Assembly: GCF_004011695.2 (NCBI RefSeq) | Contig: NC_082411.1 | Location: 1,031,001-1,095,000, forward strand | Reading direction: 5' to 3' | DNA from: Ascochyta rabiei | Lineage: Eukaryota; Ascomycota; Dothideomycetes; Pleosporales; Didymellaceae | Length of the DNA: 64,000 bases | Shown: piece after piece, positions 12,108-33,716 of the stretch | Numbering within the stretch: position 1 is the stretch's first letter | Layout: each line of letters starts with the position of its first letter | The notes under the pieces: generated by a model | The model's database searches: none | Told to the model about the DNA's origin: nothing | What the model saw: only the letters and a program-made list of their open reading frames with translations | Translations under genes and position numbers: made by a program

Positions 12108-14418
12108 CGAGCCAAACAGTGGACTAGTCTGGGTTGAGAAGGACAGCGGGGTGTGGGCGATCGCAAGCTGGAATTACACGAGGTTTTATAGAGGGAGGGA
12201 TCTTGCGAGGCGCGTGATTCTACCGGTTAGGCCTCTGCACGTAGATGCCTGTGCGCCTGTGACTGGCCTTCACTCTTGTCCAAGTTGCGGTCGAGCAACT
12301 GCACTCCAGATCCTTGCAACAAAGCGCCTGCGCCCAGCCCGCAGCCCCCGCAAACAACCGTTTGTCCACTAAGGATCGGCCCACTGAGCCTGGGGTAGTA
12401 CAAAGCACATGCATAAACGTCTTCCGGTGATCATGTTATTGTAACATCGTCCACAGTAGTGCCTTCACTTGGACCAATCGAACAGTGAAGAGCAATTGAC
12501 AGGTTCTGTAGCGCTGACCAAAGCAGTTGCCTGTAGACCATCTCTTGCGTAAGGACGGTTCGTCCGAGGAAGATTCTCAGCTGGCGTGACCAACCAGAAG
12601 GCGATCTGCCAAATTGAACGCGGAACAGCTGCCACATCACGCGAGGCTCATGTCGCTTGCCGCGCGAGAGAGGATTGGCACACTCCAGCATTGATCATGT
12701 CCCGGAGGCGGGTCCCAAATTGAAAACCCCGTCTGGGCGTCTCGGCGTTGCACGCCAACTTGATCGAACATCGTGAGTCTTGAGCCAGGGTGAAGGCCTG
12801 ACAACTTGAGATCCCGCACATCAAGGCCACCAAACACTCCACTAGACTCCGTGAGTTCGTGTCACCAGCACATGTGGCTGTAAAGCTGAAAGCCTTCAGG
12901 ATGTTGTGCTACTGTCCTGCGACGGTCAGGCGTTCCGGACGTTGAAAGAGGTTGCGATCAACGAAAGAGGTGTTGGATCATGCAGGATCAGCCTTGGGCA
13001 CATGTGGCTAGCGTCTTTCCCGATGAACATCCCCAGCGTTCAGTCTCCTCTGCACCGCTCGCGCCTACGTGCACAGCTGACATTGCCCAGACACCAAGAC
13101 CGTGGTGGCTTTTTACCATTCGGATTAGAGCAAGCGCATCGAGTCCTCCTTTAGGACAGGCAGCCGGTATGGTTTTGAGGTGTCGAAAATCAGGTTCAGA
13201 TGCCGCGAAAGAAACAGCCACGAACACTCAGAGGAAGTGCCCTACTGTCGCGGAAGGGCGAAAGAGTTGATGAGACGTGATGGTGTGTATAGGTTGCATC
13301 CGATGTGTTCGTCATGTGCAGCAATGTGGAAGTGGCCTCCATCTTGGAACGTAGCAACATAGCAACTGCACGTCGATGTATCGACCAGACGATAGCTGGA
13401 GACTGTCTCGACAGTCCTGGCTGCAAGGGCGATTCGACTCTCAGCGCGCACAGTGTACGCTTGCAAGACCAAGGAATAGCGCAGCTCAGGATACAAGACG
13501 CACCGTATCGCGTTGGGCGTCAGCAAGTAACCTGTTACCGCAAAGTCAGCTCGAACAACCTGTGGCATTCGACACTCATCCTCACCGGTCGTCTCGCGAT
13601 CTTCGGCATTTTGAGACATTTGCAGTCCATCTCAACGTAGCGCAAGAAGCACAATCGGACTTGATGTCGCTGGTTCCCTTCTTTGCACATGCCATGTCGA
13701 ACGAGAGGACCAGAGTGTTTCTTGGAGCAAGAGTTGAAGAGACATGGCGTCCAGTTCCACAAACCGACTCTTTCTCGATGCAGTAAAGGCAGCACTTGAA
13801 CGTCCAGATAAGAACTGCAGGAGCAGACACGCTGCCCTTGTACAGAGAGACGAACCTATGCTGATTCACAGAGGTGAGCTACACCTCGCACCTTCTCGCC
13901 AGTGCAGGCAACGAGCTGACCACTGAGACATATCCTTGTAGCTACCACGCATCACATCCATGATCTCGGGGATTGATACGGAAACCCCTGTGGAAAACTT
14001 AATCTAACCTTGTCATGCTGAGAAAGTCACAGAAGAGGAAAACCAAATCTAACCTTCTCATGCTGAGAAAGCCACAGAAGAGGAAAACTAAACCTAACCT
14101 TGTCGTGTCGAGAAAGTCGCAGGAAAGAAAGCCAAGCTCTCGACAGTAACCGTGCTAGCACGACTGACGACCTCTCCACGAATCTCACAGTTTGCACATA
14201 CACGTCGCACGATAGCTTGCATGCGCTGCTGTTGTGAGGCGAGGAGGCGTATTCTGGAGTCTTGGTTCTGTAGTAGCGGTTTCGTTGTGTTGTATATATG
14301 TATATATGTATATATATCAGGAGTGATGTTTGTGAGGGAAAAGAAAAACGTCTTGCATGCTAGCTAGCTGTCTCTATTACTAGTACACCACGATATCTAC
14401 ACGTAGAATCATGCTTGT
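12108..14418. other. Gene-poor intergenic region
   Basis: About 2.3 kb. No open frame here has domain-like sequence. It includes a 45-bp tandem repeat (13992-14135) and an AT-rich ATATATGT run at about 14291-14319. The side next to 12107 should hold the transporter promoter. Confidence 0.5.
13992..14135. repeat. 45-bp tandem repeat, three diverged copies
   Basis: Units start at about 14001, 14046 and 14091; each reads roughly CTAACCTTGTCATGCTGAG followed by AAAGTCACAGAAGAGGAAAA. The copies differ at a few positions. The period is exactly 45 bp. Confidence 0.85.
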
Positions 14419-16059
14419 TTACAAGAACTCAATGCCCACGCCAAAGCTCAAGCCCTTCCGCCCCTGCTCTTCCTTGCGCATGACCAGGGGCAGGGAGAAG
14501 TTGACTTCGAACCGAGCCATGGGATGCGCGTACACAAGCCCGACACCAGCCGCTGCACTGGGCAGCTCTTCCTTCAGGTCGCGAAGCGTCTTCTTCAGGC
14601 TCTCTCTGGCGTCGCCGGCGAAGCTTCCGTCCTCGCTCTTGGCGCTTTGGAGGGCGAGAAGGCGGCCGCCGTTGACAAAGGCCTGCAGACGCAGCGGTGT
14701 TTCCTTGCCGACGCGCGGGACGGGGAACAGCAGAGAGGCGCCACCGGCAGCGAAGACGTCACCGCCGACAGCGTCGGGGCCGTCGTGGGGACCCAGGCCA
14801 CCGAGGCGGAAACCGCGCACGCTGTTGGGGCCGCCGAGCTGGAAGCGGTCGTTTATGCGAGAGGCGTGGGGGGCTGGGCTTCCGCGCTGGGCGAGCGGGT
14901 AGAGCAGACCAGCACGCAGACCGGCGGTCAGGGTGATGCCCGTGTTGCCGAAGGGGAGGGCGAGCTGGGAGTCGGCTTCGGTCTTGAAGAAGGATGCGTC
15001 GCCGCCGAGGACAGAGAAGCCAGCGAGCTCAGAGACGGACTTGATCAGATAGCCGCTGGAGGGGAGCAGGGGGTAGTCGCGCCTGTCGATGGACCAGGTG
15101 TGGGAGACGCTGGACTTGAACGAGTCGCCAGCGTCGGCGCGGACGGTGGGCGAGGCATTCTCGGCGAGCGAGGTGACCTGTCGCCAGATGGCCGAGTAGG
15201 CCAGGGTGTGCTCGTGGCCGGCGTGGGAGCGCCAGAAGAGCTTGGAGCTGGCGCCCTTCTGGACGTCCTCGTGGCTCGCCCAGCTCTTCAGGACGGAGCT
15301 CGCGAAGCCGTTGACCTGCAGCTTCAGGTCGGGGCTGCTCAGGACGGGGGTGTCGAAGGCGAGCGAGTAGGCGGAGCGGGTGCGGGTGCCCAGCGAGCCG
15401 TGTGCGTTGAGCGTCTCGGCGCCGCCGAACAGGTTGCGCAGCTCCGCATTGACGTAGGCGTCGGCCTCGGAGGCGCCGGCCTCGGTGCCCGTCTTGATGG
15501 TGTAGTTGCCGCGCTCGTGGGCGGAGATGTACACGTCGACGTCGGTGGGCGACGACGAGGCATTGCTGGCCTCCGGGCGGTCGAGGAAGACGGAGAGCGG
15601 CGGCTTGAAGATGCCGAAGCGGTTCAGCTTGTCCGTGGCGGTGCCGACCGCGCCCAGCGCCTCTTCGAGCGTGTACGGGTCGGCGCGGTTGGCGGTCAGG
15701 ATGGGGTTGACGACGCGCTCGAGGAAGCCGCGGCGCGTGCGGTTGGCGTGCAGGATGCGGACCGACGAGATGGTCACGGGCAGCGACGTGTTGTCCTCGA
15801 CCTGGCCTCGGGTTAGCTGGCGGCCGGGCGAGTGCAATTGGACGAGGGGGGTACCAGCTCGGCCAGGCGCTCCTGCGACTTCTGGTGCTGCGCATGCACG
15901 CGCGAGGTGAGCTCGTCCTGCTGGCGCTGCACCTCGGCCGCGTCCGTCTTGTTCTGGAGCCGGGCGAAGACCTGTGGGCCATGTCAGTCACGGGCGGCGG
16001 CATCGCCATGCCATGCACGGCTTCTTCCCACCTACATCGTCTTCCATTGGCGACGCCAT
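14419..16059 (-). CDS. SAM50: SAM50/TOB55 mitochondrial outer-membrane assembly protein
   Basis: Three exons: 16059-16036, 15971-15855 and 15801-14419, with introns of 64 and 53 nt, giving 507 residues. The start is MASPMEDD. This is the central Omp85-family subunit of the sorting and assembly machinery, which inserts beta-barrel proteins such as porin and Tom40 into the mitochondrial outer membrane. The N-terminal part is a charged helical segment followed by a single POTRA-like region (SLPVTISSVRILHANRTRRG, then a repeat with FLERVVNPIL). From about residue 150 the protein is a bacterial-surface-antigen beta-barrel, with the family signature FQLGGPNSVRGFRLGGLGP and a C-terminal strand ending FGVGIEFL. 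It is divergent from UBC6. Codons are strongly GC-rich, which creates long false antisense frames. Confidence 0.93.
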
Positions 16060-16237
16060 CAGAGCTGTTGCGGGTTGCAGCTCCACGCCTTGGCGAGAAA
16101 GGCTGAAAGCCAGGTTGGCCCGCCTCCATCATCGCGCACGTGCGCCGGGCCTGGACTCGACTCGACTCCGCACGCTGACGCTCGCCGTCACTCCCACTCC
16201 CTCCACTTGACCCCTTGTAATTCCCCTGCTTGCCCTT

Positions 16238-16280
16238 TCCTTCTAGTCTCCCTTCTAGTCTCCCTTCTAGTCTCCCTTCT
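16238..16280. repeat. CTTCTAGTCTCC 12-mer tandem repeat
   Basis: About three and a half copies of a pyrimidine-rich 12-mer between SAM50 and UBC6. Confidence 0.8.
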
Positions 16281-16430
16281 CCGCACGCCGCACAAGGCAG
16301 GCACCGCTGGGTTTGGCTCGCTTGTGGCTTCTTTGCATCTCTCGGCCTTTCTGCTTGATACCCTATTTGCCTTTACCATCTGGCCTCGCCCTGACCACAA
16401 CTACGTAAACCGTTTCACTGCACACCACCT

Positions 16431-16510
16431 CCACGCCACACACCACACCACACACCACACCACACCACACCACACACCACACCACACCACACACCACACC
16501 ACACCACACA
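16431..16510. repeat. CA/CCA-rich microsatellite in the UBC6 leader
   Basis: Almost pure CACAC and CACCA units ending three bases before the UBC6 start codon. On the mRNA this is an unstructured, G-free leader. Confidence 0.85.
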
Positions 16511-16512
16511 TC

Positions 16513-17343
16513 ATGGCCACCCCCGCTGCAACCAAACGCCTCACCAAGGAGTACGCCGCCATCGCAAAGTCGCCGCCGCCCTACATCGTCGCCCACCCCT
16601 CCGAGAACAACATCCTCGAGTGGCACTACATCCTCACCGGGCCCCCCGAAACCCCCTACGAAGGCGGCCAGTACTGGGGCACCCTCATGTTCCCGCCCGA
16701 CTACCCCTTCGCCCCGCCCGCTATCCGCATGCACACGCCCTCCGGCCGCTTCCAGCCCAGCACACGCCTGTGCCTCAGCATATCCGACTTCCACCCAAAG
16801 AGCTTCAACCCCGCCTGGGAAGTCAGCACCATCCTCACCGGCCTGCTGAGCTTCATGACAAGCGAGGAGATGACCACGGGAAGCGTGCGCGCCAGTGAGA
16901 ATGAGCGCAAGTTGTTCGCGCACCGCTCTCGCTGGTGGAACAGCACAGGCGGCGGATCCAGGCAGAGCAGCACACCGAGCGCAAACTCGCGCGGCATTGG
17001 AGCTATCAAGGCGGGTGACGGCGGCGCCAAGTTCCGCCTAGAGTGGCCTGAGGTGGACGAGGAGAATCTGAAGTGGATGCAAGAGAAGAACATCGACACT
17101 GCCACGGGTCTGCCACGTCCTGCACACTCAACCGCACAAGCACACTGTCCGCCCGAGGTCGCTGGGCTGCGGCGGAGGCCCAACGGGAGCGCGTCAACGG
17201 TAATACAGGACGCGCAGATTGCGAGGGAGGCTGGCCAGGGATATGTGAGCAGGAACAAGTGGAAGCTCATCTTCGGCGCCATCGTGACCTACATTATGGT
17301 TGCGCGCGTCTTGGGCGATGGGGCTGTTGCTGCATCTGCTTAG
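16513..17343 (+). CDS. UBC6: UBC6-type ER-anchored ubiquitin-conjugating enzyme E2
   Basis: Single exon, 276 residues from ATG 16513. This E2 works in ER-associated degradation and is tail-anchored with its catalytic domain in the cytosol. The UBC fold covers residues 5-160; the active cysteine is Cys87 in RLCLSISDFHP, followed by the family-typical FNPAWEVSTILTGLLSFM. There is no HPN triad, as expected for the UBC6/UBE2J group. A disordered linker follows and then one C-terminal membrane helix (KWKLIFGAIVTYIMVARVLG). The frame remains open upstream to 15832, but the residues there are low-complexity CA-repeat translation, so the ATG before MATPAATKRLTKEY is preferred. Divergent from SAM50. 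Confidence 0.95.
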   Translation: MATPAATKRLTKEYAAIAKSPPPYIVAHPSENNILEWHYILTGPPETPYEGGQYWGTLMFPPDYPFAPPAIRMHTPSGRFQPSTRLCLSISDFHPKSFNPAWEVSTILTGLLSFMTSEEMTTGSVRASENERKLFAHRSRWWNSTGGGSRQSSTPSANSRGIGAIKAGDGGAKFRLEWPEVDEENLKWMQEKNIDTATGLPRPAHSTAQAHCPPEVAGLRRRPNGSASTVIQDAQIAREAGQGYVSRNKWKLIFGAIVTYIMVARVLGDGAVAASA

Positions 17344-25256: not shown

Positions 25257-27049
25257 CGGACCGGAGATTCTGCAGATGTATACAAAATCAAAGCCAGATG
25301 TTTGACCAACTTGCTCAATTGGAAATTCACTGGCACCCACCCGAGTTCCAACCCATCAAATCTCCATTCTATATTGAAACACGTTTTTAACAAACTTCTC
25401 GTTAGGCTTCCCTATGCCTATCACTGCATCACACCCCACTCCAAGCTCTGGGAATTACTAAAAATGCTCCAATCCCGTCTGCAATCATCAAAGTCCAAAA
25501 TACAGTGCCCACACGCCACCAACCACCACCAGTACATCAGTCAACAACCTACACCCCTAACCTCTATCAGTCCTCGACCCTTTCGAGCCAGACGAAGACA
25601 AGGGCGACCCGGCTAGCCGCTGAGGTAGCGATGTACGGAAGCATGCTAGACGATGCTGCATGCAAAGATTCGGTGCTTGATGATGCGGTAGTTGAACGAG
25701 TGGGAGCGAACGATGGGCTTGAGTTTCCCGTGATCGATATTGCGTCATTGTGGAGCTGGCTGACATGGGTGGGTGGACTCTGGGAGGAATTTTGATGTCT
25801 GGACGGGCCAGATAGTTAGTTCTGGGAGAATTAGCGTGTTAGTGAGAAACCATGGGGGCGGATAGACGAGGTGATGAGGAGGTTGAGGTTGAGGTTGCGG
25901 TTGAAGATGCGACCAATCAGAAGGTGGTGGCGAGCAGGACTATGGAAGTGTTGTGGTGGACTTGGTACATAGTTGGCAAGAGGAAAAGTTGTGGGAGATG
26001 CGATACTGGGCACCTAGTTGTTGGAGGCTGATATCCGCTGACAGCAACGCATATGTACATACTCAAGACTAAACGATAATTCCTGTGATATGGCGAGATT
26101 TAGCAGCCTTGCACATCACTCAATCGTCCATGCTGACTATTCTCAAGCTGTTAGGGAATGTGCCGTGTAAGTCCGCGTTTGTAAAATCATGTACAGGGCT
26201 TCCAAATGGGTACCGAATGTGGTTGCAGAATGTAACCATCCTACTGCATACGTCAGTGGTCATCTCATCGGACGGTGATGAGCATCCTTACAGAGAGATT
26301 TTTGACCTTCGACCTCGAGCGATGCTTGAATGCATTGGTGCGACGACACCTGCAGTGCAGTGCTGGCGAGTTGATCTTTGCTGGAGTGATTTGAGCTCTG
26401 TTCGCAATCTGTACTTTAAAGCAGAGAACCCCATCAGCTGCAAACCGCTCTCGTGCCTGATGTACATTCATCTTATTACAAATCACGAATGCCTCAAGTG
26501 GCGAACATGTAGAGTGACGGAGTTCATTCAGATATCAAACCAGCTTGACTGTGTAGTAACTATATCAGTCGACCTACTTGTAGTCTTCTAGTGGAAGCTG
26601 GGAATGCCAAGGTTTCAGGGCTTCTCTTGTGCTGAAAAAGCCAATGCATTCCACGAGCAGGCTCTCTTATCAATATGAGTCCGGCAGTAGCGCACTCGGT
26701 GTTGAAGCAAAGAAGATAGGCAGGTCTAAACCTCCTGCCCCCCCCCCTCTCCAGCCGCTGTTGAAACAAACCAGCTTAAAGTGGCTACTCATTGTATCAT
26801 TTAGCAGGCGGGAGTATATCATGTCGTTCATTTTCCGTAGTAGAGGTCGAAATCTTGCGCCCTCCTCCAGAATTGGCCCTCGGCTGTGGAGTTCGCATGA
26901 TCAGTACTAAAGATGAAGACTCTCTGATTGGAAATGAGACATGTGGACATGCGCAATTCCCCGCAGCACAACAATGGCTGAACAGAGATATACGCGAACC
27001 TTGTAATAGCATGATGCCAGTGTTTGGGCCAGCGGGTGCAGAGCTTTGC
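25257..27049. other. Intergenic region left of the Helitron
   Basis: About 1.8 kb with no supported gene. The longest open frame (26085-26591, +) reads as non-protein-like sequence. A perfect 6-bp inverted repeat (GGCAGG..CCTGCC) with a 9-nt loop lies at 26719-26739. The Helitron 3' end is probably somewhere in the last few hundred bases, but I could not fix it. Confidence 0.45.
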
Positions 27050-27163
27050 GTTTACAGGGGTAGCGGGGTAGAGAGTTAGTAAGCAAGGGAAAATCACAAC
27101 AGTAACAGGAGTGTAAATAGCACTGTAAACACTGTTTTATTCATGTGCAGACCTGTAAACTAT

Positions 27164-27368
27164 TTAATCCTCATCATCTTCATCACTGTCCTCTGAGGAG
27201 GAGGAATCCATAGCAAGCTCTAGAGCCGCTACGGACTTCTTTACGTCCCGTACGCACTTACGGACCTCTGTAAAAAATGTTAGCAGCCAGTAGATTTCTT
27301 TTACAGGCCTGTAACCTACTCTTCTTCTTCCTCTTCCTCTTCTCCTTCTTCTTCTCCTTCTTGGAGGC

Positions 27369-27403
<35 letters not shown>

Positions 27404-28151
27404 GGGAGGCAGCAGGGGTGGCGGTGGTGCGGCGGCGCTTCTTGGAGGGGGTGGCAGGGGCAGCGGCAGGGGCAGGGGCAGCAGCAGCGGCAGCGGCAGC
27501 GGCAGCGACCTGGCGGCGGGACCTGGAGGGGGTGGCGATGGCGGGGACGGGGACGACGGGGGCGGGCGTGGCTGTAGCAGGGTCAATAAGGTCTGTATGG
27601 GGAATGTGGAGGCTGTAAACTTACGGCGGAAGGAGCAGCGGGCGCCCTCACTGCCATAGTGGCAGTTGGCGCACGAGTCGAGCAGCTGGCCTGTAACTAC
27701 CACGCAGGTAGTATACGGGCCAGCTGCTCGCTGGCAGGAGTCGCATTCGGTGGGGGCGACGCGGCCGACAACCTGCGCGAGCGCAGATTCGAGGTTCTGC
27801 TGCCGAACTGCTTACTGTCAGTACAGGGCTCTACAGGACACTTACAGGGGGTTACTTACCAGCGAGGTTGAACTTGCTGGGCTCGTAGCCCGCGCGGAAC
27901 TCCAGCTGGCGCTGGACTGGCCGAGAAGCCAGCCTTGTGCAGGCCCGCGAGGCGGGCGGCATGGCGAGCAGGGCGGCAGCGAGGGCGGCGGCGGCAGTGG
28001 CAGCAGCAGCAGTGGCAGCAGCAGCAGCAGCGGCGGCGTCAGCGGCGGCGGTGTTGGCGGTGTTGGCGGGGGCGGCGAGGGCAGCGGCGGCGTCGGCGGC
28101 GGCGGTGTTGGCGGGGGCGGCGACGTCGTCGGCGGGGGCGGAGGAGTCCAT
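27164..28151 (-). CDS. Helitron cargo gene: cysteine-rich (DUF3716-like), Ala/Lys-rich protein
   Basis: Four exons: 28151-27860, 27807-27625, 27571-27320 and 27267-27164. The introns are 52, 53 and 52 nt, all phase 1 with GT..CAG borders, giving 276 residues. It starts MDSSAPADD. Residues 1-75 are an alanine-rich run coded by GCN repeats. The core at about 98-158 contains TECDSCQRAAGPYTTCVVV followed by DSCANCHYGSEGARCSFR. This paired CxxC..C / CxxC..C arrangement looks like the fungal DUF3716 domain and could bind zinc. Then come a Pro/Ala-rich region, basic patches (SKKRRR, KKEKKKEKRKRKKK) suitable for nuclear or DNA binding, and an acidic tail (SSSSEDSDEDDED). It lies downstream of RepHel in the same orientation. 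Splicing closes exactly, so the gene looks intact. The role is unknown; nuclear targeting is an inference. Confidence 0.72.
27360..27530. repeat. GCN/GGC trinucleotide-rich tract
   Basis: GC-rich imperfect triplet repeats inside exon 3 of the Helitron cargo gene, coding Ala/Pro runs. A similar tract lies at about 27960-28135 in exon 1. Confidence 0.8.
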
Positions 28152-28593
28152 ATTGATGACCTAGAGAGTAGTAAAACGGGGGGAGGGCGGCTGCCTATAT
28201 AGTATATCGCAGCCAGCTAGCGGCTGCCAAGACCTGCGATATTTTGGTGTTGTAGCTCACCGTGAATAGTATATTCTGTTTGTCGGGCCAAAACAGTGAA
28301 TAGGCAGCCATCAAATAACGTTATAGGGCCTGTGGCTATACTGTATCTGGATTGTACAGTCACTGTACGTGGCCTGATTGGTGCTGGATACTGGTACGCG
28401 GGGGTTTGTAAGCTCACGGTGAAGGTCAACCTGCGGGCACAATAGCACCTGTAACGGCAGAATAACTAGGCGGTGACGTACTATTGATAGCCGTTAGCCC
28501 GATATACTAGTAGGTTGTGGCAGTGACGTTGACGGGCTGATATACTGGTAGCGGCGACGTTGGCGGGCTGATATACTAGTAGGTTGTGGCTGG
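28152..28593. other. Helitron internal noncoding region
   Basis: This lies between the cargo-gene start and the RepHel stop. It should contain the cargo promoter and the RepHel terminator. Its right half has the tandem repeat listed separately. Confidence 0.5.
28497..28590. repeat. Short tandem repeats (GATATACTAGTAGGTTGTGG-type)
   Basis: Three imperfect units, each beginning GATATACT(A/G)GTAG and ending GACGTTG(A/G)CGGGCT, lie directly downstream of the RepHel stop codon. The unit length varies (about 38 and 31 bp). Confidence 0.75.
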
Positions 28594-30807
28594 CTACAGG
28601 AGCACCTCTGGGTATACGATATTAGGGACCGTACGGGATGGCTCATCGCTAGTATCAGGTGCTGGCAGCAGGATTGACAGGCCTGCAAGTGTAGTTACAC
28701 GGGACATAGCTACGTATAGCTGGCCATGTGTAAACACAGCGTGACGCAGATCAACGCCTACAACAGAGAGTGACTGGCCCTGTGACTTGTTTACAGTGAT
28801 TGCAAAGGAGAGGCGAACTGGAAACTGGACCCGGCTGACGATAAACGGGAGCTCTCTACTGGTTGAAGTGAGCCTGATACGTGGCAGCAGGCGGAGCTGG
28901 CCTGCAAACTCGCCAGATAGGATGCGGGCCTGGATACAGCGGGAGGATATCTGTGTAACCGCTAAACGGGTACCGTTGCAGAGCCCCTGGCTTGGGTACA
29001 GGTTCCGTAGAAGCATTATTGGTACGCCTACCTTGAGCAGAAGGCGTGACGGGGGCAGTGACGGGGGCTCAAAGGACTGCAGCAGCTCTACGGGAGGCAG
29101 ATCCTGTGTTGTATTGTCCTCAACCTCAGCAGAGTCCACTGCAACCAGCTCTACTAGCTCACCAGGGAAGGCAGCAAGCATTGCGGCGTTGATTACAGCC
29201 ACTGCGTCGTTCCGTACGGCCAGTATAGCACGGCCGTTGAGGACCTGATAGTCCGCAGCAGCCTGCTGGAGGAGGTGCGGCGGATAGACGTGATCCAGGA
29301 AGCCCTGTAGGCTGTAGTAGACGGTCATCCAGTCTGGGATGGAGATCAGGCCATCCATCTCACGGGTAGCCAGTCCCCGGCACCAGGCTGCAAAACAGGT
29401 GTTGTCAGCCCCAGATAGCACCCGCATATTCTGACGCAGGTGCAGTACGGTCATGTGCGGCCATATGAGCGTAGACTGCTGCAGGCAGGCGTTGACGATG
29501 GCAGGCCGCTGGCCCCGGCGGACGACGGGTAGGATCTGGGCAAAATCGCCGCTGGCAATTACAGGGAGGCCGCCAAACAGGGCAGGGGAGCTACGGACGT
29601 CCTGCAGCATACGGTGGACTGCCTCGAAGCAGTAACGGTGCTGCATAGGCACCTCGTCCCAGATAACTAGAGTAGCGGCCTGCAGCAGCCGCCCAAGCTC
29701 CGAGCCTGGAGCAACAGGGCAGATGGAATCGTCGTGGATATCCAACGGGATCCGGAAACGGGAGTGGGCAGTGCGGCCGCCGGGCAGCAGGACAGCAGCT
29801 ATACCCGACGACGCAACGCACAGGACCACCCGGCCTGTAGAGCGATAGTAGGCACATATACAGCGCCAGAGGAACGTCTTGCCTGTGCCTGCTGGGCCCT
29901 GTACGAAGAAGTGGGCAGTGCTGTGGTCAGCCTCAATAGCGGCAGTAACGGCATCAAATACGGCGCGCTGGTCCATATTCAGCCCTGTAACAGTGTCCCA
30001 GAAGGCAGTGTCCTGCCCGTCTGTATCGTAGGCCAGCTCAGCGGCAAGAAGCTGATTCTGCAGCCGTACTCCCCAGTTGAACTGGCACGCAGGGAGTGAG
30101 AAATCCGTAAGACGTTTGCCAGACTCTGCCAGCAGCCCTTCTATCAGATACAGGCCGTAGTCAAGGTACGCGTCTGGATCTGCGGATACTAGCAGGGCAG
30201 CAGCAGCCTCAGGTAAGTCGTCACACAAATCCGCCTGGAAGGCTGCCCAGATAGCAGCTGGATCTGTAACAGGCCCATTTAAGAGAGCAGCAACGAAGAA
30301 GTACCGTAACGCCTGGCCTGTGGCAAACGTAACGGCGTCCTGGAAGCAGGCTACCCAGTCTCTATCGTGTAGCAGTAACCCGCGGGCAGCTGCGGCGGCC
30401 TGGAAAGTAGGATACTCTGTGCCGCTAAAGGTACGCAGGTCCGCGTAGGACTGTGGACCCCGTACGGTAGTCAAGAGAAGCCGTAGATAGAACCGTTCAC
30501 CCTGTAGCGGGCTGCAAAAGTACATGCGGCCAATCGCAGTGCCGCGCTGACGCACGTGCCAGGTCCGTGACGGGAGGTGCCAAACAAACTGGGATGGATA
30601 GTCCTGATATAGGACTTCACGGCCATACTCATGGTCAGCGTTGCGCTGGAAGAACGCCGTAAGCGTAGTTACAGATCGCTCCAGGCAGGCTGATAACTCT
30701 GCAGTGGTAGCGTTAGCAGGGAACGTAACTATCTGCTCATTCGGTAGGTGGACCGCTAGGGGCACTACAGTGGGCCGCTCCATGTGTACTAGGTACTCAA
30801 ACAGCCG

Positions 30808-30810
30808 CTA
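30808..30810 (-). other. In-frame TAG separating Rep from helicase
   Basis: The sense codons on both sides are in one frame: GAG GCT GTT TAG CGG CTG TTT. Helitron RepHel proteins are normally continuous across this joint. A single TGG or CAG to TAG change would explain it. Confidence 0.85.
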
Positions 30811-33100
30811 AACAGCCTCAGATGGACTGATATATCGCCCGTTTAGATGCTGCTTAACCTTATCTGCTTCTGAGACGTTTAGTACTGCCCTGTCAGTGCC
30901 CTTGTAGATGTACTTGTGGACGTATTTGATAGCGTGGATAGTGCCGCAAACCTCTACATTGATATGGGCCCAGTACTTACGGAGCAGACCAGGGTTATAC
31001 GGGACAACCCAGCTGTTATTAAGGTGTACAATACGGCCCTTACACCGTACAGCAAGCGTGCGGCCATCATCCCGGCGCTGATACTCAGGGTACCCGTCCT
31101 CATGGACCACTGTAGATGGGCAGTAACGCTTAGGAAAGTTCTTAGAGCACCGCGGCGGGGCGCTGTCGCGCTGAGGCACCATACACGGGGCCTGCAGATT
31201 GTGCTCCCCACATGGCCCGTGAAGCATGAAGGTCCGTACAACCTCTGTAAGCAGGCCGTCTGGGTCATCCACAGGGGAAGGGATCTCAGCCCGGATAGTG
31301 CTATCAATTGTTACAGGATCCGTGAACGCCTCGCGGTCGTGTGGGGTCAGGAACAGCAGCAGGTGTATATGGGGCAGGCCCCGTTTCTGGTACTCAATTG
31401 TGTACACGTGGCCCAGATGGGTGCCGAACAGGTTGCTCTTCACATCGGCTACTAGCTTCTGCACCTTCAGATGGAAGGCCCAGCAGATTAGATCAGGCCG
31501 ATTCAGGCCTGTCTCCCCAGGGCGGAGCTCACGGGCAACCTCTGGCCAGTATGGGCTAGCTGTAAAAGTGATAAACAGGGTAGGGCGGCCATATCGACGG
31601 ACGATAGCCATAGAGTCCTGATAGCACTGGCTGACAAATCGTGAGCTGCCTAGATAGGACGACGGCAGGACAACGCGGCGTCCAACAGGGCCTGCCTGGG
31701 CGTCGTTGTTGCCCATAACGGCATCAGCAACACCGCTATACAGGTCTGCCCGCAGCTGTGCCTGGTTTGCTCGGATCCAGGCCAGCCGGGCCTGGTCGCA
31801 GATAGCCCAGATATCCACAACGTACTGCTGAAACAGCCTGTAGAAGCGGAACGGATTTGTAGTCTGCCCAGGGCGGGGGTGTAGATAGTATCGATAGTAG
31901 GTTTGCTGGGTCAGCGACGTCTGCAGACGGGATCCGTCCTGGTTACGGAGCGTTAGCCCCGGCCGCCACCCAGAATCCCCGTGGGGAAACATCAGTACGT
32001 AGTGTAGCGGCATGTAAGATGGGTGGGCGGCGCTGATAGTAAACAGGGCGCTGGAGTTACGGGCCGCTAGGACGATGGGACGGGACGTCTCTGCACCTGC
32101 TGCGTCAGGTATCACTAGGCCTAGCTCATCGCTAGTAGGTACGTTCTCCCTGCGGCGGTCCTGCCCAGTCTCTAGGGCTAGTGTAAGCCTGCTGGTTAGT
32201 ATGACGCGGGCGTCTGCAGCGCTACTGTTGAGCCGATCCTGGGCCGTGCGGTATATAGATATATATGGGTTATTGATCTTATATAGCATTGCTGTTAGAT
32301 CTTGGAGAATCTGGAGCTGTAAGTGGCTGTTCCGCTGGTGGCGGGCGTTGGCAGCGTACTGTGGGTCGTAAAAGTATAGCTGAGCGTACTGCGGCAGGCT
32401 TCCCTCGAGAACCTCTACAGGGCCGCTGCGGTGGTATAGGGCCCCGTGGATCTGAAACACCTGCACGCCAGGGCCCTGCGCCCCACGGCTGGTAGGTGTA
32501 CAGTCTACCGAGGTAAACGCAAAGGCAGCGTTGTAGGCCCGTAGCTCCTTACGGAAGTGCCGCGCTGCTAGAGTATTTGTGTTGAGTAGCTGATACAGGT
32601 ACGACGGCAGCGGTGTGAGGGCTGGCAGGTCAACCTCGCCGTCCAGGCAGCAGAGAGTAAATCGCGGGTCTGTTACAGAGGTAGTGCTCTTCCGCTCATC
32701 TATCCAGTGTAAGGCGCCGCAGGCTGAACAGGGCACCTGCATGCTGCCAATATCGTAGTATACACCATCAGGACGACGTCGCAGGAGCGGGGTGGTGTCC
32801 TGTTGGAGCCCTACAAGGACTGTCTCGGGCAGGTCGTCAAACGGGTTATCACTATACTGGGAGCTAGGGGCAGCAGCTGGAGCAGCAGCAGCCGGGTTAT
32901 TAGGAGTATTACTGGCACTGCCCTCACGGCGTGAGGCCTGTTCAGGGGCGCTAGCACTGGGCGCTGGCTGGGAGGCAGTTAGGCGGTCCCTCTGGGGGCT
33001 TGATGGACGTGGAGGTGTAGAGAGACGGCGTCGCCGGCGGCCTGCACGGGACGTCTACTGACTGTAAGCGTAATCAGAGAGAGGGGGAGGTAGTAGTTAC

Positions 33101-33272
33101 GGCACTGCAGTTGCTACATGGCTGGTAGACGCCCCCTATCCGGTTGCGGCGGAAGTTAGCAGATGGGAGATAGGTCCTACAGCTGCTGCAAAATACTTGG
33201 GATGATGGCTGGCTGACGGCTAGGGAAAAGACTGGAGGGGGGGGGGGCTAGAACACGCCGTGGACGGGCCAT
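33101..33272 (-). other. RepHel exon 1 with zinc-finger-like motif and 11-G homopolymer
   Basis: ATG 33272 starts MARPRRVLAPPP. With one fewer G in the run at 33237-33247, this frame runs into FCSSCRTY and PCSNCSA and up to the GTAACT donor at 33100. As written, the ATG frame stops at a TAG soon after. Two CxxC pairs suggest a zinc-binding module, as often precedes the Rep domain in Helitrons. Confidence 0.6.
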
Positions 33273-33716
33273 ACGAACCTGTAGCGAGCCTGTACAGGAC
33301 CTGTAAAGCCTTTTACAGGAGTTTACAGGAGCAGATTACCGGAACAATATAGGGCCGCTACGGGCGGTGTAGGACGTCAGTATAGCTGAGAGTTGACGCT
33401 AGAGGGTGCACGGCCAGAAAACGACAACTTTACACGTCTGCTGCTCCCGCTACAGGGCTGATTAATTTGTCTCAAGCAGATAGGCAGGTAGCGGCGAGTT
33501 TTATCAGCTATCTGGCACTTATTTCAGGGCTTACAGGGGCTTTGTTGGGGAGATCACTTTAACCTGTTTATATATAAGATGGACAGTGAACGGTGGTTGG
33601 AGTGTAGGGTGCTAGCGCGTCATGGCAAGCGCGTTGGTTGCCGAGGTGACAACGCGCCACATGTTTGCAAACGGGAGCAGGCACGAGCTGCGTATTAACC
33701 ATAAGCTCGATGCGCA
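33273..33716. promoter_or_regulatory. Helitron left end and kinesin promoter
   Basis: The Helitron side has CCTGTA/TACAGG copies at about 33289-33335 and the candidate TC terminus at 33553. The remaining about 160 bp before the kinesin ATG contain a TATA-like TTTATATATAAG at about 33577-33588. No other gene is seen. Confidence 0.5.

What the first reader, a model, noticed from the sequence alone, without database searches (positions are those of the whole stretch)
27164..28151. Spliced, apparently intact cargo gene inside a Helitron encoding a cysteine-rich DUF3716-like protein
Seen in sequence: four exons whose three introns (52, 53, 52 nt, all phase 1) join into one 276-residue frame. The core has paired CxxC motifs (TECDSCQRAAGPYTTC and DSCANCHYGSEGARC). 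It is flanked by an Ala-rich N-terminus, lysine/arginine patches and an acidic tail. The RepHel gene next to it is broken while this gene is not. Known: DUF3716 is a small fungal cysteine-rich domain of unknown function, and Helitrons capture genes. Inference: it may be a standing partner of fungal Helitrons (DNA binding, regulation or silencing escape) rather than a random capture.
Basis: partly seen in the sequence, partly recalled or inferred. Interest (0 to 1): 0.75.

Follow-up and report, generated by a model that had tools for sequence, protein, structure and literature searches.

The report
Zinc-type second gene on fungal Helitron
A family of rolling-circle jumping genes in the chickpea blight fungus carries, beside its own replication gene, a second spliced gene for a small cysteine-rich protein that similar elements in other fungi seem to carry too, so it looks like a working part of the element rather than a stray captured gene.

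Summary
Four exons (introns 52, 53, 52 nt, all phase 1) join into 276 residues with a PF12511 (DUF3716) domain, inside a 6.57-kb RepHel element of what is very probably Ascochyta rabiei. The genome shows 25 such elements: 21 carry the gene along its length, 2 share one deletion of the DUF3716 domain, 2 are old and RIP-mutated. Elsewhere, relatives of this gene and of RepHel share contig lengths in three cases (0.13 expected), and the two proteins diverge in parallel. One intron position is conserved. So it is probably a lasting second gene, not a random capture.

All 29 RepHel stops are RIP-type, and the cargo shows the stops its smaller target predicts (2 seen, 2.5 expected). A shield against RIP is not supported. 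Best model: an accessory protein acting in trans, perhaps on a CCTGTAA motif found 14 times in the element against 0.9 in shuffles. DNA binding is not shown, and the linkage rests on contig lengths, not on contigs read.

The parts
27015..33579 (-). Whole Helitron: 5' TCTTATATATAAACAGG ... CACTGGCA 3'; left flank A, right flank T
   Evidence: 21 copies at different sites end at the same bases; 25 left ends and 25 right ends genome-wide
28594..33054 (-). RepHel gene, 1486-codon frame (first Met at 32742), here interrupted by one in-frame TAG at 30808-30810
   Evidence: PF14214 E 1.7e-56 and PF05970 E 2.9e-66 on its two pieces; frame open in 7 of 21 copies; 29 of 29 premature stops across the 21 copies are RIP-type
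27860..28151 (-). Cargo gene exon 1 (Ala-rich N-terminus)
   Evidence: length of the tract before Met64 varies between copies, a multiple of three in 9 of 21
27960..27962 (-). Internal ATG (Met64), start of the public protein P0001
27808..27859 (-). Intron 1, 52 nt, phase 1
27625..27807 (-). Cargo gene exon 2
27626..27784 (-). DUF3716 domain (residues 106-158), six Cys: C-x2-C-x9-C-x10-C-x2-C-H-x7-C
   Evidence: PF12511 E 2.2e-17; the six Cys and the His are invariant or over 90% conserved in 55 aligned proteins
27572..27624 (-). Intron 2, 53 nt, phase 1; position conserved in relatives
27320..27571 (-). Cargo gene exon 3 (Ala/Pro-rich with Lys/Arg patches)
27268..27319 (-). Intron 3, 52 nt, phase 1
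27164..27267 (-). Cargo gene exon 4 (end of a predicted long helix, acidic tail, stop)
33289..33329 (-). 5' subterminal hairpin built of inverted CCTGTAA motifs (sites starting at 33300, 33313, 33323)
   Evidence: 33281-33400 folds better than shuffles, z -2.56, 3 of 200 shuffles as good
33531..33537 (-). CCTGTAA site near the 5' end, within a CCCCTGTAA direct repeat found at a like distance from both ends
27052..27058 (-). CCTGTAA site near the 3' end, partner of the above. Further sites in the element, by first base: 27152, 27301, 27308, 27690, 27842, 28448 and, inside RepHel, 29559, 29984, 31311
   Evidence: 14 of 20 window matches lie in the element, 11 of these outside RepHel

Best explanation
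The gene is a lasting second gene of an ascomycete Helitron lineage and makes an accessory protein that serves the element in trans. Shown: it belongs to the whole family in this genome, and its cysteine core is conserved in 55 proteins. Strongly suggested: relatives of the gene and of RepHel are linked in other fungi and diverge in parallel. Inferred: the six-Cys core folds as a compact, probably zinc-bound module; the basic patches and long C-terminal helix add nucleic-acid contact and pairing; the acidic tail recruits a partner. The most likely target is the element itself, through the CCTGTAA motif that crowds it, above all outside RepHel, helping RepHel find or open the ends or driving transcription of the element. 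Likelihood: accessory protein of the element about 0.62; CCTGTAA as its target about 0.25.
For: All 25 elements found carry the gene or its remains: 21 along its length, 2 with one shared deletion, 2 old and RIP-mutated. No close copy outside: of 24 DUF3716 matches at E up to 1 in the genome, 22 are in elements; the other two are a 29-bit match and one below the cut-off, and neither locus gave a blastn match to the element. Equal contig lengths for DUF3716 and RepHel proteins within one source in 3 cases, 0.127 expected from jittered lengths, 2 of 5000 trials reach 3. Parallel divergence: DUF3716 core (58 columns) 67.2% and 82.8% where RepHel (765 columns) has 58.4% and 81.8%, same pairing of the four sets. 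Intron position conserved in 33 of 54. Core model of a relative: pLDDT 95.7, pTM 0.86. CCTGTAA 14 times in the element against a mean of 0.88, maximum 5, in 500 shuffles.
Against: Only 3 of 54 DUF3716 rows share a contig length with a listed RepHel row, and the six non-Ascochyta RepHel rows closest to ours (67-80% identity) share none; only 120 of 1001 RepHel rows were listed, only the longest contig of each protein is shown, and gene calling may miss a spliced gene, so this absence is weak. The contigs were not read; for the 2.5-Mb contig, sharing it says nothing about neighbourhood. The form without the domain moved at least once. The core has no credible match among solved structures and none to Zn2Cys6 by profile, so zinc and DNA binding rest on the Cys pattern alone; CANCH is also a CxxCH (haem-type) string, the only ground of the best PDB sequence match, SoxA at E 0.025. 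The CCTGTAA motif was picked after looking, and no correction for that was computed.
Confidence: 0.62

Rival explanations
1. Passenger: an ancestor of the element captured a host DUF3716 gene once, and it has been copied along ever since without a task.
For: The form without the domain still transposed. The frame from the first Met is broken in 15 of 21 copies. Helitrons are known to capture genes.
Against: The core keeps 55-67% identity to three relatives whose presumed linked RepHel is 49-58% identical; an idle gene should have decayed over that time. No close host parent in this genome. Conserved intron position.
Confidence: 0.17
2. Recurrent capture: Helitrons in different fungi picked up DUF3716 genes independently, because these genes are common and mobile.
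For: DUF3716 also occurs outside the element (C14 locus); one strain-specific Colletotrichum gene bears PF12511 (PMC5225507, one passage seen).
Against: The pairing of the four sets is the same for both proteins, with similar distances, as expected from joint descent; but these are four sets only.
Confidence: 0.1
3. Silencing-escape factor: the protein shields the element from RIP or other silencing.
For: A very young family: 2-7 non-RIP substitutions from the majority per copy. Fungal transposons do carry genes thought to counter silencing (TET/JBP; PMC12730594, passages seen, one from the abstract).
Against: 311 of 348 substitutions among the 21 copies are C>T or G>A, 302 of those in CpA/CpG context; two old copies are heavily hit. 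It does not stop RIP. Other silencing was not testable.
Confidence: 0.06
4. Host-serving cargo: the gene benefits the fungus and is merely spread by the element.
For: It is a spliced gene with an open frame in 6 (long form) or 16 (short form) of 21 copies.
Against: Presumed linked relatives in other fungi track RepHel divergence; nothing found here ties it to a host trait.
Confidence: 0.05

Closest known systems
DUF3716 (Pfam PF12511)
   Same: Domain match far above cut-off in the gene and in 12 of 12 proteins of the first alignment
   Different: Pfam gives no function; here it is tied to a transposon lineage. No paper in the searched library holds 'DUF3716'; one holds 'PF12511', without link to Helitrons in the passage seen.
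Canonical Helitrons (Helitron1; definition from passages of PMC3627910)
   Same: RepHel protein, 5' TC, flanks mostly A and T
   Different: 3' end reads CTGGCA rather than CTRR, and no 3' hairpin was found
Fusarium FoHeli elements (Helitron2-like; PMC5148889, outline with abstract, sections 6 and 13 and passages read)
   Same: Ascomycete RepHel elements with non-canonical ends; FoHeli3 has an extra ORF found only in Helitrons
   Different: The FoHeli3 ORF is upstream, opposite in direction and has no known domain; FoHeli ends have asymmetric terminal inverted repeats, which I did not find here
Fungal Helitrons with TET/JBP genes (PMC12730594) or the genes capA, capB, capC in Pleurotus (PMC4289320)
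   Same: A second gene riding on a fungal Helitron (passages seen)
   Different: Other protein families
Plant Spm TNPA-type accessory proteins (recalled, no call)
   Same: Works-like comparison only: a second protein acting on repeated subterminal motifs
   Different: Unrelated element class; no binding shown here

Membership tests
DUF3716 / PF12511 | Profile match above the curated cut-off | tested here: met
   63.2 bits against 22
Helitron superfamily | One protein with HUH-type Rep and Pif1-type helicase | tested here: met
   PF14214 and PF05970/PF21530; one 1486-codon frame in 7 of 21 copies
Helitron superfamily | Precise ends; insertion between A and T without target duplication | tested here: inconclusive
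   Ends the same in 21 of 21; right base T in 21 of 21, left base A in 17 and T in 4. Empty sites were not looked for.
Canonical Helitron (Helitron1) | CTRR 3' end | tested here: not met
   Ends CTGGCA in 20 of 21 copies, CTCGCA in one
Canonical Helitron (Helitron1) | Hairpin just before the 3' end | tested here: not met
   Last 100 and last 50 nt fold no better than shuffles, z +1.1 each; no perfect stem of 4 or more in the last 60 nt
Helitron2 | Asymmetric terminal inverted repeats | tested here: not met
   Best ungapped complement of the 5' 40 nt in the 3' 150 nt is 6 bases; 133 of 200 shuffles do as well
Helitron2 | Hairpin at the 5' end | tested here: inconclusive
   A hairpin exists, but 250-290 nt inside the end
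Zn2Cys6 (Gal4-type) DNA-binding domain | Profile similarity | tested here: not met
   hhalign against 14 Zn2Cys6 domains of the same genome (15 fetched of 137 matches): local 3 columns at probability 1.2%, global 19 columns at 0.05%
Recent host-gene capture | Close parental copy elsewhere in the genome | tested here: not met
   the DNA search skips simple repeats, and a parent in another species cannot be excluded
Lasting Helitron partner gene | Same gene beside RepHel in other fungi | tested here: inconclusive
   Three equal contig lengths, 0.127 expected; the contigs themselves could not be read

The most novel reading that the evidence does not exclude
DUF3716 is a dedicated accessory family of ascomycete Helitrons with an unseen small fold that binds CCTGTAA repeats at the element ends and guides RepHel: a two-protein rolling-circle system in which end recognition is shared with a second protein in place of the missing 3' hairpin.
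Probability: 0.22. Interest if true: 0.75.

Novelty: new variant of a known kind. Interest (0 to 1): 0.52.

Why it matters
If the link holds, a domain of unknown function gets a context (transposon accessory protein), and a Helitron without a found 3' hairpin gets a candidate for how its ends are recognised. Helitron end recognition is mostly ascribed to RepHel and a 3' hairpin (general knowledge); a second protein would be testable with a purified protein and short DNA. It also warns that DUF3716 genes that differ between strains may be transposon genes.

Tried and rejected
Zn2Cys6 homology: the six-Cys spacing invites it, but profile comparison found none. Solved or viral structures like the core: none credible (best were PDB sequence matches at E 0.025, an 11-residue CANCH stretch of SoxA, and 1.9, and Foldseek rows at E 9.4 and 5.5). 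A haem-type reading of CANCH was not pursued. Within-family dN/dS: useless, because 302 of 348 substitutions are RIP-type in CpA/CpG context; the raw values there (RepHel singletons 2.51, cargo core singletons 3.4, shared 0.82) must not be read as selection. Intactness of the cargo as a sign of selection: rejected. Anti-RIP function: rejected in its simple form. Short non-autonomous derivatives: none seen, 25 left and 25 right ends match 25 RepHel loci. Relatives in viral contigs and prokaryote genome contigs: none confirmed. Asymmetric terminal inverted repeats and a 3' hairpin: not found.

Full report
What is there. The finding lies in a genome of 40.9 Mb in 23 contigs. Its best protein match is EKO05_0010994 of Ascochyta rabiei on a contig of 1,223,078 bases, the length of contig C21 here, and the published ArME14 assembly is 40,927,385 bp (PMC7341154, passages seen), so the host is very probably A. 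rabiei ArME14. The protein matches DUF3716 (PF12511) at E 2.2e-17.

The element. The 6,567-base stretch 33580-27014 (element plus one flanking base on each side) recurs at 20 other places with the same ends and different flanks. The ends read TCTTATATATAAACAGG and CACTGGCA (one copy CACTCGCA); the right flank is T in 21 of 21 copies and the left flank A in 17 and T in 4. Genome-wide there are 25 left ends, 25 right ends and 25 RepHel loci, so no short derivatives were seen. Of the 27 PIF1 loci, 25 belong to elements. Twenty-one elements hold the cargo gene along its length, two of them matching from base 53 on and several with smaller deletions, one of 45 bases inside the domain. Two (C4 and C18) lack the same stretch of it, including the DUF3716 domain; they are 99.87% identical over 2.3 kb and have different 3' flanks, so the deleted form was copied after the deletion. 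Two (C19 and C3) are old copies in which 286 of 375 and 286 of 396 mismatches are C>T or G>A; both still show the cargo gene. The other rows are short, mostly under 100 bases in repeat-rich parts of the query or on the other strand of the copies themselves.

Why RepHel is broken and the cargo is not. Among the 21 copies 311 of 348 substitutions are C>T or G>A, and 302 of these sit in CpA or CpG context: repeat-induced point mutation. All 29 premature RepHel stops are of this type. RepHel offers 106 places where one such change makes a stop, the cargo gene 9; the rate seen in RepHel predicts 2.46 stops in the cargo over 21 copies and 2 are seen, both in one copy. RepHel's frame is open in 7 of 21 copies. 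The cargo frame is open in 6 of 21 from the first Met and 16 of 21 from Met64; many breaks are length changes in the Ala-coding repeat of exon 1, whose length is a multiple of three in 9 of 21. Assembly error in that repeat cannot be excluded.

Relatives. Two searches gave 55 proteins with PF12511, one of them this family's own; the named ones are from Ascochyta, Cadophora, Halenospora, Stipitochalara and Oidiodendron, the rest unnamed. Six Cys and one His are invariant or over 90% conserved. In 33 of 54 the residues after RC[SY][FLS] are RK or RM, which is how an unspliced phase-1 donor C|GTAAG or C|GTATG reads; the annotated models from Cadophora and Halenospora appear to skip it. A few models that run on beyond it (P0006, P0007, P0017) have a basic stretch, a helix-like stretch and an acidic tail.

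Linkage elsewhere. Contigs could not be read, so I compared contig lengths: 54 of the 55 DUF3716 rows (one has no length) against 119 of the 120 listed RepHel rows (1001 matched). Three pairs agree to the base within one source: 4,036 (lgn), 6,871 (jgi), 2,525,436 (ena). Jittered lengths give 0.127 on average, and 2 of 5000 trials reach three; shifting all lengths by 1 to 15 bases either way gives 0 or 1. For the longest contig, equal length suggests the same contig but not neighbourhood. The four sets pair the same way for both proteins: RepHel 58.4% and 81.8%, DUF3716 core 67.2% and 82.8% within pairs (765 and 58 columns). Against this, the six non-Ascochyta RepHel rows closest to ours (67-80%) share no contig length with a DUF3716 row.

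Structure and motif. A model of an 85-residue relative (P0046) that is nearly the core alone reaches pLDDT 95.7 and pTM 0.86; it has no credible match among solved or viral structures. A model of P0001 (mean pLDDT 69.6) adds a long helix over residues 170-209. The motif CCTGTAA occurs 20 times in the window, 14 of them in the element; shuffles of the element give 0.88, maximum 5 in 500. Eleven of the 14 lie outside RepHel, among them sites in introns 1 and 3 and one in exon 2. One CCCCTGTAA stands near each end, and inverted copies form a 5' subterminal hairpin. A 17-base stretch with the 3' copy is intact in 25 of 25 elements, old ones included. The motif was chosen after looking. Among 7-mers seen at least 6 times in the element it ranks second by excess over shuffles, after the overlapping CTGTAAA; most others near the top are words of triplet repeats. 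No correction for the choice was computed.

Reading. I take the gene as a lasting accessory gene of this Helitron lineage, acting in trans (the form without the domain moved, and RepHel itself is broken in 14 of 21 copies). That its target is the CCTGTAA motif is a guess with some support. A simple shield against RIP is ruled out. In print: no paper in the library holds 'DUF3716'; one holds 'PF12511', without link to Helitrons in the passage seen; searches on Helitrons with extra or accessory genes and on A. rabiei (listings) showed none with this gene; fungal Helitrons with other extra genes are known. The ArME14 paper counts 44 Helitron sequences and the A. lentis paper 2 (PMC7341154 and PMC8022934, passages).

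Noticed in passing
window 27014-33580: CCTGTAA motif crowded in the element, both strands, in introns and both ends
   Followed up: yes
L033 (G000:C14:1468900-1471100), local about 1032-1211: A distant DUF3716 locus outside the element, 29 bits; the in-frame stops may lie in an intron, so it may be an intact host or other mobile gene
   Followed up: partly
G000:C3:392648-417829: An old element split over about 25 kb between its ends, so other DNA has probably inserted into it
   Followed up: no
P0001 against window 27593-27624: The public protein seems to use an acceptor that would make intron 2 only 32 nt; probably a wrong gene model
   Followed up: partly
21 copies of the element: Only 2-7 non-RIP substitutions per copy but 12-58 RIP-type ones: a very young family already under RIP, which may date its last burst relative to sexual cycles
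   Followed up: partly
DUF3716 proteins, contig lengths: Of 25 rows on contigs of 3 kb or more (of 54 with a length), 12 are 5.0-7.3 kb, about the length of such an element, as if repeats had assembled to element length
   Followed up: no
window 27014-27057 and 33531-33579: No 3' hairpin and no terminal inverted repeat, so how the ends are recognised is open
   Followed up: partly
window 14001-17000: Stretch of 63-66% GC with long overlapping frames on both strands (430 and 472 codons) and simple repeats
   Followed up: no
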